In this document: piece after piece, positions 5,048 through 20,276 of the stretch
How positions within the stretch are numbered: the stretch's first letter is position 1
How the letters are laid out: each line of letters starts with the position of its first letter
Assembly (NCBI GenBank): GCA_903844735.1
Contig: CAIMUX010000074.1
Span: 1-57,821 of the forward strand
Direction: 5' to 3'
DNA from: Candidatus Eiseniibacteriota bacterium
GTDB taxonomy: Bacteria; Eisenbacteria; RBG-16-71-46; CAIMUX01
Length of the DNA: 57,821 nucleotides
Made by a program: the position numbers and the translations under genes
The notes under the pieces: generated by a model
Database searches by the model: none
What the model was told of the DNA's origin: nothing
What the model saw: the letters and a program-made list of their open reading frames with translations, nothing else

Positions 5048-6802
5048 TCAGTTGTTGGCTGTCAGCTCGGCCACGACGGCTTCGAGGAGCCTCGCGCCGG
5101 TGGTGCGGGAAGCGGCAATCTGCGCTTCCAACTCGTCCACGAGGGCCATCAGTTGATCCACCTTGGCCACGATCCGGCGTTGTTCGGCGAGGGGGGGGAT
5201 GGAAACCGTGAATCGATTGATGAGGCGCAGAACGAGATTCTTGTTACCGATACCCTGCGTGTTTTCCGCAGACTGTTGCCTGACAAAGGGAGAGTTGATC
5301 AAGTGCTTCAAGTACTGCCGGCTCAGATTGGACTGGGAGAACTTGAGCAACGCCAGACTGACGAAGATGCTATACGGTCGAGTGTCATCGATGGTGACGG
5401 TAATCCAGGTCGTTCCGACCTTTGTGAGCAAGATATCTCCATGTTCTGGCCGGCACCGTTTGCACAGTTCACGATGTGCGTTCGATGAAATGTATCTGGT
5501 GTTGGAGAAGTCAATGATGCCGCTTGAAACGTCCTTTACGGACAGAAACGGCACCCCAGATGCTTGATACTGTGGGGTGTGATGCGCCCCGTCAGTAATG
5601 AGGAAACACACATCCGCGAGGTACCGCCACTGCCAACTATCCGGAACTCCGAACGGGACGGCATCCTCTTCGATAGGACCGAGGAAGTCCTGCCGCCGAA
5701 TCCTCCTTGCCTTCACCAGTCGCTCGCGATCCGAATCAACCCGTTTGAGTAGCGCCTCCGCAGGTTCGTCATTCGGGTCCTGGGCAGCAAGCATCCCCCG
5801 CACGGCCAGCTCCAGGATGGACTTTCTCAGCTCGCCCGGCGGGATGCTGTACGACTTGTGGAACAGAAGGTTAAGGTTGGCCGGGCTGGGCGCGTCGGCA
5901 AAGCGGGCCAGCGACGCGCGGGCGAGCGCGGCCTGCCGGGTCTTTCGTTCATTCTGCTGCGCCTCCAGCCGATCACACAGCGCCATCAGTTCATCCGAGC
6001 CCCACCACCCCCGCTCCCCCTCGAACTCCTCGATCCGAATCGGCTTGCCCTTGTTGTAGGTCTTGGCTCCCGGCGGATACGGATGCTCGTAGTACCAGAC
6101 CCCAGTCGTCGGCGCCCCCTTCGTGAAGAACAGTAGATTCGTGCGGATCCCGGTGTAGGGATTGAAGACCCCGTTGGGCAGCCGGACGATGGTGTGCAGG
6201 TTGCACTCGGCCAGGAGGGCTTCCTTGATCCGCGTCTTCACGCCTTCACCGAAGAGCGTGCCGTCGGGGAGAACGAGTCCGGCGCGGCCGCCGGGTTTCA
6301 AGATCTTCATCAAGAGCACCAAGAAGAGGTCGGCGGTCTCGCGGGTGCGGAACTCTGAAGGAAGGTTCGCCTGGATGCCGCCCTCTTCCATGCCGCCGAA
6401 CGGCGGATTGGTGACGATGACATCCACGCGTTCCTTAGGCGACCAGTCGCGGAGCGGACGGGAGAGCGTGTTGTCATGGAGGACGTTGGAGGGGGCGTCG
6501 GTGCCGTGCAGGAGAAGGTTCGTCATGCACAGGATGTGCGGCAGGTGCTTTTTCTCGATGCCGGCGAAGCAGGTCTGGATGGTGCGCTCGTCGGCCTCGG
6601 TCTTGGCCTGCCGGTGGAGGTGCTCGATGGTGCAGACGAGGAAGCTGCCGGTGCCGCAGGCTGGGTCGAGGATGGTCTCGCCGAGGCGGGGATGGACCTG
6701 ATCGACGATGAACTGGGTGACGGCGCGCGGGGTGTAGAACTCGCCCGTGTTGCCGGCGGATTGGAGGTCTTTCAGCAGCTTCTCGTAAATGTCGCCGGAC
6801 AT
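5048..6802 (-). pseudogene. Type I R-M methyltransferase fused to half a specificity subunit (hsdM'-'hsdS)
   Basis: Residues 1-265 are an N6-adenine DNA methyltransferase core: AdoMet motif I DPACGTGSF at about 47-55 and catalytic NPPF at about 132-135. The HsdM N-terminal helical domain is missing. Its last part is still encoded upstream of the ATG (VRQVINKVNGIDFN, near 6862-6820), so the ATG at 6802 is internal and has no ribosome binding site. At about residue 268 the HsdM sequence switches in frame to the central conserved helix of an HsdS (DELMALCDRLEAQQ). A linker, a single target-recognition domain (about 384-540) and the C-terminal coiled repeat (PPLAEQRRIVAKVDQLMAL) follow. The HsdM C-terminus and the first recognition domain are therefore lost. 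It could act as a modification enzyme only if expressed from the upstream stub. Confidence 0.8.
5985..6010 (-). other. hsdM/hsdS in-frame fusion point
   Basis: The protein reads KPIRIEEFEGERGWWG, typical of the region after the HsdM catalytic core, and then continues without a stop as DELMALCDRLEAQQ. That is the central conserved helix of an HsdS, normally found after its first recognition domain. The change falls at about residues 266-271. It implies a deletion that removed the HsdM C-terminus and the HsdS N-terminal half while keeping the frame. Confidence 0.65.
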
Positions 6803-6828
6803 GTGGCGGTCATCGGTGGCGTTGAAGT

Positions 6829-7353
6829 CTATGCCGTTGACCTTGTTGATGACTTGGCGGACCCGTCCTCGTAGTAGTCCTGGGTGGTGACGGTCTCTTG
6901 CGCGGCGGTGTAGCCCTCCGCCGCGCGGTAGCGCCGCCAGAGTTCCTCCGGCGTCGGAAACTGGTCGAGCGGGATCTCCCTTTCGACCATGCTGCCGGTC
7001 CCCGTGCGGTCGTGATCGAGGAAGGCGTCGCCGTTGGAGCTGTGGGCGAACGGCAGGTCAAGGATCTCGGCGTACTCCAGCGCTTGCTGCATGCCGGCGC
7101 CGACGGCGTGGTTGTTGTCCTTTGCCTCGATGACCGCCAGCGGGATGTTGAGCTTGTAGTAGAGGATGTAGTCGGCCTTCTTCGCCTCGCCCCGCGTGGT
7201 CGTCTTGCCGCGGACGATGACCCGACCCTTGGTGAAGTAGCGTTCCTCCAATACCTGGGTCAGAAGATTCCATTTGGATCCGCCCTCGCCGGCGATGGCT
7301 GGGGTGATGAACTTGGTGCGGATGTCCGTTTCGGTGAGGGCTTTCTTATCCAT
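6829..7353 (-). pseudogene. Truncated hsdR: N-terminal nuclease domain of a type I restriction subunit
   Basis: The product matches only the N-terminal part of EcoEI-type HsdR: MDKKALTETDIR, then the PD-(D/E)xK nuclease core with ADYILYYK and IEAKDNN (catalytic D...ExK visible). It then runs through ELWRRY to QDYYEDG, which normally leads into the helicase domains. Here the helicase/translocase part is absent: after GSAK the frame enters hsdM sequence out of register and stops at 6829. About 170 of the usual 750-1000 residues remain. I chose ATG 7353 because the family begins at that Met; the longer frame to 7395 adds an unrelated tail. It lies 39 bases after the DUF1016 gene in one apparent operon. 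Confidence 0.85.
6853..6864 (-). other. hsdR/hsdM deletion junction with shared bases
   Basis: On the minus strand GGGTCCGCCAAG can be read both as the HsdR codons for Gly-Ser-Ala-Lys, completing the family motif DGSGK-like, and as HsdM codons spanning VRQV in the other frame. A short sequence that fits both parents is what microhomology-mediated deletion leaves. The HsdM frame is shifted by -1 relative to HsdR. No classical slippery heptamer is present, so programmed frameshifting is not indicated. Confidence 0.6.
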
Positions 7354-7391: not shown

Positions 7392-8585
7392 TCACGGCGA
7401 GTCCACTTCGGGGAGAGCCGCCCGCACCACCGCCGCAAGCTGCTTCGCGGACGGGAGCTTGCCCTTGAGTTCAGCCGGCAGTTTCGACTGGAGTTGGTAG
7501 GCGGCCACGCCGATCGGGTTCTTTTTGGTGCGCAGCGCATATTCCACCTCCACGTCGTCCTTCTCCGCACACAGGATAATCCCAATCGACGGCTGGTCGC
7601 CATCGCCGCGTTCTTTGTCATTGAGCAGATTCAGGTAGAAGTCCATCTTTCCCGCGTACTCCGGTTCAAACGGCCCGACTTTTAGTTCGAAAGCCACCAA
7701 CGCCCGCAGGAAGCGATGATAGAAGAGCAGATCAATGAAGTACTCCTTCTGTCCCAAGGCTAGCCGGTGTTGGCGACCGACGAAGCAAAAGCCGTAGCCG
7801 AGCTCGAGAAGAAATGTGTGCAGGCGGGAGATCAGTCGGTTCTCGAGGTCGCGCTCCTTGACCGCGCGGCGCAGGCCGAGGAACTCGAGATTGTAGGAAC
7901 TCTTGAGCATCTCATCCGCCTGCTCGGCCAGATACTCCGGCAGGGCGAGGCGAAAGTTGTGCGTCTTCTTCTCGGTCACGGCCCGTTCATACGTGCCGGC
8001 CTTGATCTGATTGAGCAGGACGTTGCGGGACCAGCCGAATTGGGCGGTGGCACGGAGGTAATAGAGCAATGCCGGCGGGGACTTGATCCTGCCGAGAAGA
8101 AGGACGTGATGACCCCACGGGACAGCCGCCGCCAATTCTCGCACAGCTTGTGCGAGAATCGGGTTCCCCTCGGATGCGAGCCGCCTGACCCTACCTTTGG
8201 GGACAACCTGTCCCCGTAGTGTTGACCCTTTGTGCCGAGGGGGTCGCTCTTCGGATTCTCGCGCAGCCTGTGCGAGAATCGCCTCACTGGAGTAGACCGT
8301 GTGGAGCTGGCGCATCCGCCAGACGTTTGCGAGGGAAAAGCCGCGGATTTCCGGAAACGCGTGCCGTAGGTCAGCCGCCACCATTTCCACCACAGCGTCA
8401 CCCCAGCCCTGTGTCCGCTTTTTCTCCGCGATCCCGCGTCCGATGTCCCAGTAGAGCAGGATCAAGTCGCGGCTCACGGCTCGCGCCGCCGAGAGTCGGG
8501 CGGAAACCACTCGCGCCTTCAGGTCTTCGATGAACTGCCGATAATCCCGCGAGGCGATCACGGTCGGGGCGGCCGCCTTCTTCAT
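7392..8585 (-). CDS. DUF1016 (YhcG-like) PD-(D/E)xK nuclease family protein with in-frame insertion
   Basis: YhcG/DUF1016 proteins pair an N-terminal helical domain with a C-terminal PD-(D/E)xK nuclease domain and often sit inside type I restriction loci, as here. The N-domain shows LLYWDIGRGI and the Ser/Trp-rich NVWRMRQLH. The nuclease core is visible around residues 270-300 as YFIDLLFYHR followed by AFELK (D...ExK). The family motif ILAQAVRE occurs twice, at about residues 103-110 and 143-150. The 40 residues between copies are Arg/Pro-rich and look foreign, and their DNA is full of hairpins. The frame survives because the added unit is 120 bases. Start ATG 8585 overlaps the TGA of an upstream remnant. 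Confidence 0.88.
   Translation of the reverse strand: MKKAAAPTVIASRDYRQFIEDLKARVVSARLSAARAVSRDLILLYWDIGRGIAEKKRTQGWGDAVVEMVAADLRHAFPEIRGFSLANVWRMRQLHTVYSSEAILAQAARESEERPPRHKGSTLRGQVVPKGRVRRLASEGNPILAQAVRELAAAVPWGHHVLLLGRIKSPPALLYYLRATAQFGWSRNVLLNQIKAGTYERAVTEKKTHNFRLALPEYLAEQADEMLKSSYNLEFLGLRRAVKERDLENRLISRLHTFLLELGYGFCFVGRQHRLALGQKEYFIDLLFYHRFLRALVAFELKVGPFEPEYAGKMDFYLNLLNDKERGDGDQPSIGIILCAEKDDVEVEYALRTKKNPIGVAAYQLQSKLPAELKGKLPSAKQLAAVVRAALPEVDSP
8135..8159. repeat. Palindromic repeat, copy 1, inside the DUF1016 gene
   Basis: Perfect inverted repeat with 11-base arms ATTCTCGCACA and TGTGCGAGAAT around GCT. It encodes the ILAQAVRE motif of the DUF1016 protein on the minus strand. A near-identical copy begins exactly 120 bases further on. 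Confidence 0.9.
8199..8215. repeat. Short inverted repeat between the two palindromes
   Basis: Seven-base arms GGGGACA and TGTCCCC flank ACC. It lies inside the 120-base inserted segment of the DUF1016 gene. With the outer palindromes it could form a series of hairpins. Confidence 0.75.
8255..8279. repeat. Palindromic repeat, copy 2, inside the DUF1016 gene
   Basis: Second copy of the palindrome, with one change in the left arm (ATTCTCGCGCA). On the minus strand it encodes ILAQAARE. Sequences outside the two copies do not match each other, so the duplicated piece is essentially the palindrome alone. Confidence 0.88.
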
Positions 8586-16939: not shown

Positions 16940-19630
16940 ATGTCTAGGTTCTTCCTTGATCACCCCGTCTTCGCCTGGGTCATTGCCATCGTGATGATGC
17001 TGGGCGGGGCCCTCGCCATCTACAAACTGCCCATCGCGCAGTACCCGCCGGTCGCGCCGCCGTCGATCTCGATCCGGGCCGTGTATCCCGGCGCGTCGGC
17101 GCAGACCATCGAGAACAGCGTCATTCAGATCATCGAGCAGAAGATGACCGGGCTCGACCGGATGATCTACATGGGCTCGACCAGCGACGCCTCGGGTTCC
17201 GCGGCCCTGACGCTGACCTTCGCTCCCGGCACCGATCCGGACCTTGCGTGGGCGAAGGTCCAGAATAAGCTGCGGCTTGCCATACCGATGCTGCCCGAGG
17301 TGGTGCAGCGCACAGGTCTGAGCGTCGGCAAGGCGACCCGCAACTACCTTCTGATCGTCGGGCTCACATCCTCGGATCCGACCTGGACCAACAACGACCT
17401 CAGCGACTATCTGGTCTCGAACGTCCAGAACGCGCTCGTCCGCGTGCCCGGGGTAGGAGAAGTCGAGCCGTTCGGCAGCGGTTACGCGATGCGCGTCTGG
17501 CTCGACACGGACAAGCTGACCAAGTACGGCATGACCATCGCCGATGTAGTCGCCGGGGTAAGGGCCTACAACGTCGAGATCTCCGCCGGGCAGTTCGGCG
17601 GCGCTCCGGCGGTGCCGGGTCAGAGACTCAACGCCTCCATTCTGGTGCAATCGCTGCTCAAGACCCCCGAGGAGTTCGCCGCGGTGCCGTTGCGCACTAA
17701 CCCCGATGGCTCGGTGGTGCGCGTCTCCGACGTCGGCCGCACCGAGCTCGGTTCGGAGCTGAACGACATCTCCGCCAACTACAACGGCCGGCCGACGACC
17801 GCGCTTGCCATCCGCCAGGCCGTCGGAGCCAACGCCCTCGACGTCGCCGACGGGGTCAAGGCGGCGATGAAGGATCTCTCGAAGTACTTCCCCAAGGGGA
17901 TGGAGGTCGTCTATCCATACGACACCACGCCCTTCGTGAAGGTCGCGATCGGGGAGGTGGTCAAGACCCTGATCGAGGCGATCATTCTCGTCTTCCTGGT
18001 CATGTTCCTTTTTCTCGGGAACCTGCGCGCCACCCTGATACCGACGATTGCGGTGCCCGTGGTGCTCCTGGGCACCTTCGCCGTGCTCGGGCTGTTCGGC
18101 TTCTCGATCAACATGCTGACCATGTTCGCGATGGTGCTCTCGATCGGTCTGTTGGTCGATGACGCGATCGTGGTGGTCGAGAACGTCGAGCGGCTTATGA
18201 GCGAGGAAGGGCTGTCGCCGCGCGAGGCCACGGCGAAGTCGATGGACCAGATCCAGAGTGCGCTCGTCGGCATCGGCCTCGTCCTGGCTGCGGTTTTCGG
18301 CCCGATGGCGTTCTTCCCGGGCTCGACCGGCGTTATCTACCGGCAGTTCTCGATCACAGTGGTCGCCTCGATGCTGCTCTCGGTGGTGGTCGCCTTGATC
18401 CTCTCGCCGGTCCTGTGTGCCGGGCTGCTCAAGCCGGTCGAGAAGGGCCACGAGGCGGCCGAGACCGGCTTCCGGGTTCTCAAGCCCTTCTTTCTCTGGT
18501 TTGACCGCCTCTTCTACCGCATGCGCGACGTATACGAACGGGTGGTCGGGCACATCCTCGGCCGCCGCCTCCGCTACGTGGCGGTGTTCGTGGTGATCGT
18601 CGCCGGCCTGGCGGCGCTCTTCTCGCGCATGCCGACCGCCTACCTTCCCGAGGAGGACCAGGGCATTCTGCTCGCCTCGGTCCAGACTCCGGCCGGCTCG
18701 ACGCTCGAGCAGACCGGCCTCGTTGTCAAAGGCGTGCAGAAGCACTTCCTGGAGCAGGAGAAGGATGCGATCGAAGCGAGCATGGGAATGACCGGAATGG
18801 GCTTCGGGGGCCGCAGCCAGAACCAGGGGATGATCTTCCTCAAGCTCAGGGACTGGAAGCTGCGCAATCGTCCGGAGCTGCGGGTCAAGTCGATCGCGGC
18901 CCGGGCGATGCCGGTTCTGGCGGGCATTCGCGAGGCGAGAGGGTTCGTGTTTCCCCCCCGGCGATCCCGGAGCTGGCGTCGGCCACCGGCTTTGACCTCA
19001 TGCTGCAGGACCGGGGCGGGCTGGGCCACGAACAGCTCATGGCCGCGCGCAATCAGCTACTCGGCGCCGCGATGCGTGACCCGCGGCTGGTTCGGGTGCG
19101 ACCCAATGGATTGGAGGACGTGGCCCAGTACAAGGTGGACATCGACTGGGAGAAAGCCGGCGCCCTCGGCGTGCTGCCGAGCGTCGTGCAGAGCTACCTC
19201 TCCGGGGCGTTTGGCAGCGCCTACATCGGCGACTTCGTCCAGGGTGGCCGCGTCAAGCGCGTCTACGCGCAGGCCGACGCGCCGTTTCGGATGCTGCCGT
19301 CCGACCTCGACCGGCTGTATCTGCCCAGCACCCGCGGCGGTCTCGTTCCGCTTTCGGCGATCGCCTCCGGGCGCTGGGTCTACGGATCGCCGCGGCTCGA
19401 GCGTTACAACGCCCAGGCGGCGATCAACATTCAGGGCGAGGCCGCGCCGGGCCACAGCTCCGGGGAGGCGATGCAGGCCATGGAGGAGCACGTTGCGGAG
19501 CTCCCGAAGGGGATCGGCCACGAGTGGACCGGCATCTCCTACCAGGAGCGCATGGCCCAGTCGCAGGCCGGCCTGCTCTACGCGTTTTCGGTGCTCGCCA
19601 TCTTCTTAGTCCTCGCCGCGCTCTCGAACT
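16940..19630 (+). pseudogene. RND efflux pump (HAE1/AcrB type), frameshifted and C-terminally truncated
   Basis: The inner-membrane pump of a tripartite drug or solvent exporter. The first 670 residues are intact and include FFLDHPVFAWVIAI, the proton-relay region LLVDDAIVVVENVER and GPMAFFPG. At 18953-18959 a run of seven C breaks the frame; one more C would restore it. The protein then continues from PAIPELASATGFD through the docking domain to FLVLAALSN near 19630, where AcrB homologues continue ALYESW. The last roughly 150 residues, transmembrane helices 9-12, are gone, and the DNA joins directly to the middle of an outer-membrane factor gene. The pump cannot be functional as read. Confidence 0.88.
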
Positions 19631-20276
19631 GTTGGTGGGCGCACCGCTGCCGGACGAGCTCCTGCCCGAGGATCTGAGCCCGCTGGTGGACTTCCCTGCG
19701 CTCGCGGTCGGGCTACCCTCCGAGGTCCTGCTCTCTCGTCCCGACATTCTCGCGGCCGAGCATCGCCTGCGCGCGGCCAACGCCGATATCGGCGCCGCGC
19801 GCGCCGCCTTCTTCCCGCACATCTCGCTGACCGCGGCCCTGGGCACGCTCTCTCCCGATCTAGAGCATCTGTTCGTCTCCGACACCCATAGCTGGCGCTA
19901 TGCTCCGGTCGTCCAGGTGCCGATCTTCGGGGGCGGTGGCCCGCGGGCGAGTCTGAAGATGACGAAGATCGAGCGCGAGATCGCGGTTGCCGCCTACGAG
20001 AAGACGATTCAGGCGGCGTTCGCGGAGGTCGCCGATGGTCTTACCCTGCGCACGACGCTACTCGAGCAACGCGAGGCCTGGGACCGCCTGTTGGTCGCGC
20101 TCGAGCAGACGCTCCGGCTCTCCGAGGCGCGCTACCAAGCAGGGCTCGATGGTTACCTCGGCGTGCTGGTGGCACAGCGCTCGCTCTTCTCCTCGCAGAG
20201 GACGGGCGTCGCCCTGCGCCTGGCCGAGAAGGCCAATCGGATCGCGCTGTACAAGGCACTTGGCGGGGGGAGCTGA
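19621..20276 (+). pseudogene. Outer-membrane efflux channel (OprM/NodT type), 5' half missing
   Basis: Starting abruptly at ALELLVGAPLPDELLP, this matches the second half of an OprM-type channel. RPDILAAEHRLRAANADIGAARAAFFP is the conserved repeat-2 helix region, split here as RPDILAAEHRLRAAN and then DIGAARAAFFP. It is followed by PIFGGG and the long helix ending ALYKALGGGS. The lipoprotein signal and first repeat (about 250 residues) are missing. The join to the RND gene falls inside the bases GCGCTC, shared by both parents, so a deletion of roughly 1.2-1.3 kb is inferred. Confidence 0.85.

What the first reader, a model, noticed from the sequence alone, without database searches (positions are those of the whole stretch)
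5048..7353. Type I restriction locus collapsed to nuclease domain + methyltransferase + single recognition domain (type IIG-like order)
Seen: an HsdR stub that keeps the PD-(D/E)xK nuclease core and stops before the helicase, an HsdM core with intact DPACGTGSF and NPPF, then half of an HsdS with one recognition domain. Known: type IIG enzymes have the order nuclease-methyltransferase-specificity and lack the translocase. This locus has that order made by two deletions from a type I operon. Only a -1 frame difference at about 6853-6864 separates the stub from the rest. Inference: it is either an intermediate toward a single-chain enzyme or simply a dead locus.
Basis: partly seen in the sequence, partly recalled or inferred. 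Interest (0 to 1): 0.75.

Follow-up and report, generated by a model that had tools for sequence, protein, structure and literature searches.

The report
Decayed, deletion-collapsed type I restriction locus
Two internal deletions have shrunk an ordinary three-gene bacterial DNA-defence system (type I restriction-modification) to a nuclease piece, a methylase core and half of a target-recognition protein; it superficially resembles a known compact enzyme type (type IIG), but everything measured points to a broken, decaying gene remnant rather than a new enzyme.

Summary
On the minus strand, residues 1-168 of an EcoAI-family HsdR (nuclease core, no helicase) run into residues ~123-410 of a 491-aa HsdM, which run in frame into the second half of a 513-aa HsdS (numbering of the intact relative L041). 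In 64 of 65 related loci the same pieces lie in a normal hsdR-hsdM-hsdS arrangement. The lost DNA is about 2.24 kb and 0.87 kb. Both joins show short apparent microhomologies (~6 and ~3 bp); the frame break at join 1 is a direct product of that deletion.

The type IIG reading is not supported. The HsdM N-terminal domain (the type IIG spacer equivalent) and the HsdM C-terminus are gone, and the only start codon for the M-S fusion is an internal ATG. The M core has changed 10 of 183 near-invariant residues, against at most 3 in 24 equally isolated relatives. One relative (L085) shows an independent R-M collapse with a stop at the catalytic lysine; 9 of 64 relatives have a broken R or M. An RND pump operon on the same contig is collapsed in a similar way, so contig-level misassembly remains a minor rival. 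Verdict: a dead type I locus, ordinary in kind; interest low.

The parts
7392..8585 (-). Intact YhcG/DUF1016-family PD-(D/E)xK nuclease gene directly upstream of the R stub, same strand; neighbour, not part of the collapse
   Evidence: Pfam YhcG_C 1e-60 and DUF1016_N 1.4e-32; open frame of 397 aa
6862..7353 (-). HsdR stub: residues 1-~164/168 of an EcoAI-family type I R subunit; PD-(D/E)xK core complete, helicase and C-terminus missing; reading frame runs on to a TAG at 6829-6831
   Evidence: NF046051 5e-55, profile 1-157/768; alignment with L041 and L034 R; only R residues 1-168 of 789 found in the genome
6853..6862 (-). Join 1 (R to M): GGGTCCGCCAAGTC; apparent ~6-bp microhomology CAAGTC between R (Gly-Ser-Gly-Lys-Ser codons) and M (Arg-Gln-Val codons) in different phases, hence the frameshift; about 2.24 kb missing relative to L041
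   Evidence: DNA alignments of the window to relatives; flank listing
5999..6861 (-). HsdM catalytic core (L041 residues ~123-410 of 491) with motif X GEFYTP (6745-6728), motif I DPACGTGSF (6667-6641) and motif IV NPPF (6409-6398); N-terminal domain and C-terminal ~81 residues missing; 10 near-invariant residues changed
   Evidence: N6_Mtase 2.5e-62; 3ufb 157-453 of 530; constraint test
5994..6002 (-). Join 2 (M to S), in frame: M ...GWWGS joined to S DELMALCDRLEAQ; apparent ~3-bp microhomology GGA; about 0.87 kb missing relative to L041
5048..5996 (-). Second half of HsdS: central conserved region (~5989-5771), one TRD (~5644-5114) and C-terminal conserved repeat; first TRD missing
   Evidence: Methylase_S 1.1e-07 on P0002 418-594; alignment to L041 S residues ~211-513
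5048..6802 (-). Longest translatable M-halfS frame from the first available start, an ATG internal to the M core (584 aa); no Shine-Dalgarno-like sequence seen upstream
   Evidence: the ORF listing; sequence

Best explanation
A horizontally acquired EcoAI-family (type IB) hsdR-hsdM-hsdS operon has suffered two internal deletions at short microhomologies, and what remains is a non-functional relic. Deletion 1 (about 2.2 kb) fused R codon ~168 to M codon ~123 out of frame. Deletion 2 (about 0.9 kb) fused M codon ~410 to the middle of S in frame. Shown: the pieces, both joins, the absence of the missing R parts elsewhere in the genome, the excess of changes at conserved M residues, and intact relatives with the full arrangement. 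Inferred: that the two deletions happened separately, that the microhomologies mediated them (the true parent sequence is not known), and that no active enzyme is made. The R stub would end at residue 174 (counted from the ATG at 7353) with a frameshifted tail. The M-halfS frame could start only at an ATG inside the catalytic domain, giving a methylase without its N-terminal domain.
For: Profile and structure matches define truncated R, M and S. In 64 of 65 related loci with an R match, R stub and M core are separated by the normal helicase and C-terminal coding length. The frame at join 1 differs because the shared CAAGTC lies in different codon phases in R and M. M core: 10 of 183 near-invariant residues changed versus 0-3 in 24 equally isolated relatives, rank 1 of 68; 61 of 12,023 pooled in the others, Fisher p=9e-8, ignoring relatedness. 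Broken R or M in 9 of 64 relatives; L085 is an independent R-M collapse with a TAG at the catalytic Lys. Loss of the HsdM C-terminus is reported to prevent assembly with HsdS, and ten engineered HsdR-nuclease/HsdM fusions, all with complete HsdM, did not restrict (PMC6158711).
Against: No internal stop codons have accumulated in either fragment, and the R stub's conserved residues are kept (1 of 62 changed, not unusual). The catalytic motifs of both nuclease and methylase are intact. Join 2 is in frame. Two relatives with apparently intact M frames (L087, L091) also have 7 conserved-site changes, so the constraint signal is strong but not unique.
Confidence: 0.75

Rival explanations
1. Assembly or consensus artefact: the organism carries an intact operon (or a strain mixture) and the contig was mis-joined at short repeats.
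For: The same contig holds a second collapsed operon: an RND pump (frame broken at a run of eight C near 18,951-18,958 and cut at residue ~890 of ~1,048) joined out of frame to the second half of an OprM-like gene. Three such joins plus one homopolymer frameshift in 58 kb is a lot. The genome is a fragmented assembly of 142 contigs.
Against: The missing R parts are nowhere else in the 5.4-Mb assembly. Homologies of 3-6 bp are much shorter than assembler overlaps. rpoB, rpoC, uvrA and several other RND pumps in the same genome read as full-length open frames. A mis-joined but functional operon would not explain 10 changed near-invariant residues in M.
Confidence: 0.14
2. Orphan methyltransferase: the M-halfS fusion, started at the internal ATG or by re-initiation after the R-stub stop, methylates a palindromic motif as a homodimer, as engineered M-halfS fusions do.
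For: In-frame M-S join; all catalytic motifs present; engineered M-halfS fusions of another type I system were active methylases (PMC6158711).
Against: The engineered versions kept the whole HsdM, whereas here the N-terminal domain and the C-terminal ~81 residues are lost. No start signal is seen, and the M core has lost constraint.
Confidence: 0.05
3. Nascent single-chain type IIG-like enzyme made through a -1 frameshift during translation at join 1.
For: Nuclease-methylase-single-TRD order; both catalytic cores intact; only one frame break separates them. Bower et al. predicted that nature makes such fusions repeatedly (PMC6158711).
Against: No slippery heptamer at the join (GAC GGG TCC GCC AAG); the type IIG spacer equivalent (HsdM N-terminal domain) is deleted; the M core is losing constraint; no relative has the same fusion in an intact frame.
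Confidence: 0.04

Closest known systems
EcoAI-family (type IB) type I restriction-modification operons, hsdR-hsdM-hsdS, e.g. L041 (Candidatus Methylomirabilis MAG) and L034
   Same: Every piece is homologous and in the same order; M core 85-90% and R stub 66-79% identical to many relatives
   Different: R helicase and C-terminus, M N- and C-terminal domains and the first TRD of S are deleted; frame broken at the R-M join
Type IIG / IIL enzymes (MmeI, BpuSI, Eco57I)
   Same: N-terminal PD-(D/E)xK nuclease, then gamma-class methylase, then a single TRD
   Different: No helical spacer between nuclease and methylase, not one reading frame, and the nuclease and methylase are plainly type I EcoAI-family sequences
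Engineered HsdR-nuclease/HsdM and M-half-HsdS fusions (Bower et al. 2018, PMC6158711)
   Same: Same two kinds of fusion, there made by design
   Different: The engineered versions keep whole HsdM; the nuclease fusions still did not restrict
L085, Verrucomicrobia UBA6176 locus
   Same: HsdR N-terminus joined directly to the HsdM core, helicase lost
   Different: Different breakpoints; in-frame join but a TAG replaces the catalytic Lys; M also ends abruptly at the contig edge

Membership tests
Type I R-M system (functional) | HsdR with nuclease plus SF2 helicase/translocase | tested here: not met
   Only residues 1-168 of 789 present; no other family R part in the genome
Type I R-M system (functional) | Complete HsdM (N-terminal, catalytic and C-terminal domains) | tested here: not met
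   Catalytic core only
Type I R-M system (functional) | HsdS with two TRDs | tested here: not met
   One TRD
Decayed type I R-M locus (EcoAI family) | Recognisable hsd sequences in ancestral order with disrupted frames, and relaxed constraint | tested here: met
Type IIG R-M enzyme | Single polypeptide with N-terminal nuclease, methylase and TRD | tested here: not met
   Frame break at 6853-6862; two frames
Type IIG R-M enzyme | Helical spacer between nuclease and methylase (MmeI 156-300) | tested here: not met
   HsdM N-terminal residues 1-122 deleted; spacer definition from PMC4833311
Type IIG R-M enzyme | Catalytic motifs of PD-(D/E)xK nuclease and gamma-methylase | tested here: met
   D75, E90xK92; GEFYTP, DPACGTGSF, NPPF
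Type IIG R-M enzyme | Cleavage at fixed distance and methylation of one motif | not testable with these tools
   needs biochemistry or methylome data

The most novel reading that the evidence does not exclude
The locus is a natural, recent experiment in which a type I operon is being converted into a motor-less single-chain restriction-modification enzyme, with the R-M-halfS polypeptide produced by occasional -1 frameshifting and the conserved-site changes in M reflecting adaptation rather than decay.
Probability: 0.03. Interest if true: 0.75.

Novelty: new member of a known kind. Interest (0 to 1): 0.2.

Why it matters
If real, it is a natural example of the very deletions proposed to turn type I systems into type IIG enzymes (PMC6158711), and it shows why most attempts would fail: the deletion that brings the nuclease next to the methylase also removes the spacer domain and breaks the frame. 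Beyond that it is an ordinary decayed defence locus; disruptions of hsd loci are described as common (PMC3874165).

Tried and rejected
AlphaFold of the M-halfS frame with a 6-row alignment gave mean pLDDT 36 and is uninformative, so no fold search was run. Junction DNA gave no match in viral contigs and no near-complete match in plasmids. Homopolymer sequencing error as the cause of the R-M frame break was considered and rejected: the break coincides with the deletion joint and follows from the different codon phases of the shared CAAGTC. A known natural R-M-S fusion family was looked for among 80 close loci and not found, apart from the pseudogene-like L085.

Full report
OBSERVATION. The feature is on the minus strand. 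Reading 5'->3': an intact YhcG/DUF1016 nuclease gene (8585-7392); an HsdR stub starting at the ATG at 7353; a join near 6860; an HsdM core; a join near 5998; half an HsdS ending at 5048. The R stub matches the EcoAI/FtnUII-family R model at 5e-55 over model positions 1-157 of 768. Its only solved relative by sequence is the N-terminal nuclease part of a type I R subunit, 3h1t. The M core matches N6_Mtase at 2.5e-62 and residues 157-453 of a 530-residue HsdM. The S part carries one Methylase_S domain.

RELATIVES AND BREAKPOINTS. A scan of 84,980 species genomes returned 80 loci. Among the close ones the M core is 85-90% identical at the protein level and the R stub 66-79%. Of 65 loci with an R match, all but L085 have R and M in the normal arrangement. 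Against L041 (R 789 aa, M 491 aa, S 513 aa) the window keeps R 1-168, M ~123-410 and S ~211-513. The missing DNA is about 2.24 kb at join 1 and 0.87 kb at join 2. In nearly all the relatives aligned, the window's DNA similarity stops and restarts at the same bases: 6859 for M, and about 5999/5996 for M/S. At join 1 the R side of relatives reads ...GGC-TCC-GGC-AAG-TCG and the M side ...CGC-CAA-GTC-ATC. The shared CAAGTC lies in different codon phases, so the frameshift follows from the deletion and is not a later lesion or a homopolymer error. Join 2 shares only about GGA and is in frame. These microhomologies are read from relatives, not from the unknown parent.

FUNCTION. Three lines argue against a working enzyme. 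First, anatomy: the HsdM N-terminal domain and C-terminal ~81 residues are gone. Type IIG/IIL enzymes keep a helical spacer between nuclease and methylase (MmeI residues 156-300; PMC4833311), and loss of the HsdM C-terminus is reported to stop assembly with HsdS (PMC6158711). Second, expression: the frames differ at the join, there is no slippery sequence, and the first start codon for the M-halfS frame is an ATG inside the catalytic domain. Third, constraint: at 183 positions that are at least 98% conserved among 67 close relatives, the window's M core differs at 10. Twenty-four equally isolated relatives differ at 0-3; the pooled rate in the others is 61/12,023 (Fisher p = 9e-8, ignoring shared ancestry), and the window ranks first of 68. 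Private changes fall on conserved and variable positions at equal rates (5.5% and 4.9%), against 0.5% and 1.7% in the others. The R stub shows no such excess (1 of 62).

BASE RATE. Among 64 related loci with R not cut by a contig edge, 9 have a broken R or M frame. L085 is an independent collapse: HsdR cut after ~84 residues joins the M core in frame, but the codon for the catalytic Lys of the nuclease is TAG and motif I reads DPAAGTGGF. In a second sample of 385 genomes, several R matches also have short open frames, some possibly contig edges. A published review calls disruptions of hsd genes common (PMC3874165). The same-family and same-order relatives of the host that are held lack this R family, consistent with horizontal acquisition.

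IS IT REAL DNA? This cannot be settled here. Against misassembly: the missing R parts are absent from the rest of the assembly; the joins share too few bases for assembler overlap (inference); core genes and several other RND pumps elsewhere in the genome are intact; and an intact functional operon would not explain the M-core changes. For it: the same contig has another collapsed operon (RND pump plus OprM-like gene, 16,940-20,276) with a similar joint and a frameshift at a run of eight C. I keep misassembly at about 0.14.

COMPARISON. Bower et al. (PMC6158711) built HsdR-nuclease/HsdM and HsdM-half-HsdS fusions and proposed that nature makes type IIG enzymes this way, with most attempts failing. 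Their nuclease fusions (all with whole HsdM) did not restrict; their M-halfS fusions methylated. The window looks like one of the failures. It is a decayed member of a known family with the domain order, but not the defining features, of a type IIG enzyme.

Noticed in passing
window 16940-20276 (+): RND efflux pump gene broken by a frameshift at a run of eight C (18,951-18,958) and then joined, at about residue 890 of ~1,048, to the second half of an OprM-like outer-membrane gene; a second multi-gene collapse on the same contig.
   Followed up: partly
window 8135-8159 and 8255-8279: Two near-identical 25-bp palindromes ATTCTCGCRCA..TGTGCGAGAAT inside the variable loop of the yhcG gene; found nowhere else in the 5.4-Mb genome at up to 3 mismatches. 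Relatives also have repeated short peptides in this loop.
   Followed up: partly
L024, L028, L032, L036, L037, L069, L076, L084, L088, L092, L094: In related type I loci a yhcG/DUF1016 nuclease gene sits between hsdM and hsdS (or directly after hsdM), whereas in the window it lies upstream of the R stub; a recurrent association that may be functional.
   Followed up: partly
L085 5625-6848: Independent in-frame HsdR-HsdM collapse with TAG in place of the catalytic Lys codon and altered motif I (DPAAGTGGF).
   Followed up: yes
L041 6782-8155: A gene whose translation looks like a reverse transcriptase (YFRYADD motif) overlaps the end of hsdS in an otherwise intact type I operon; judged by eye only.
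   Followed up: no
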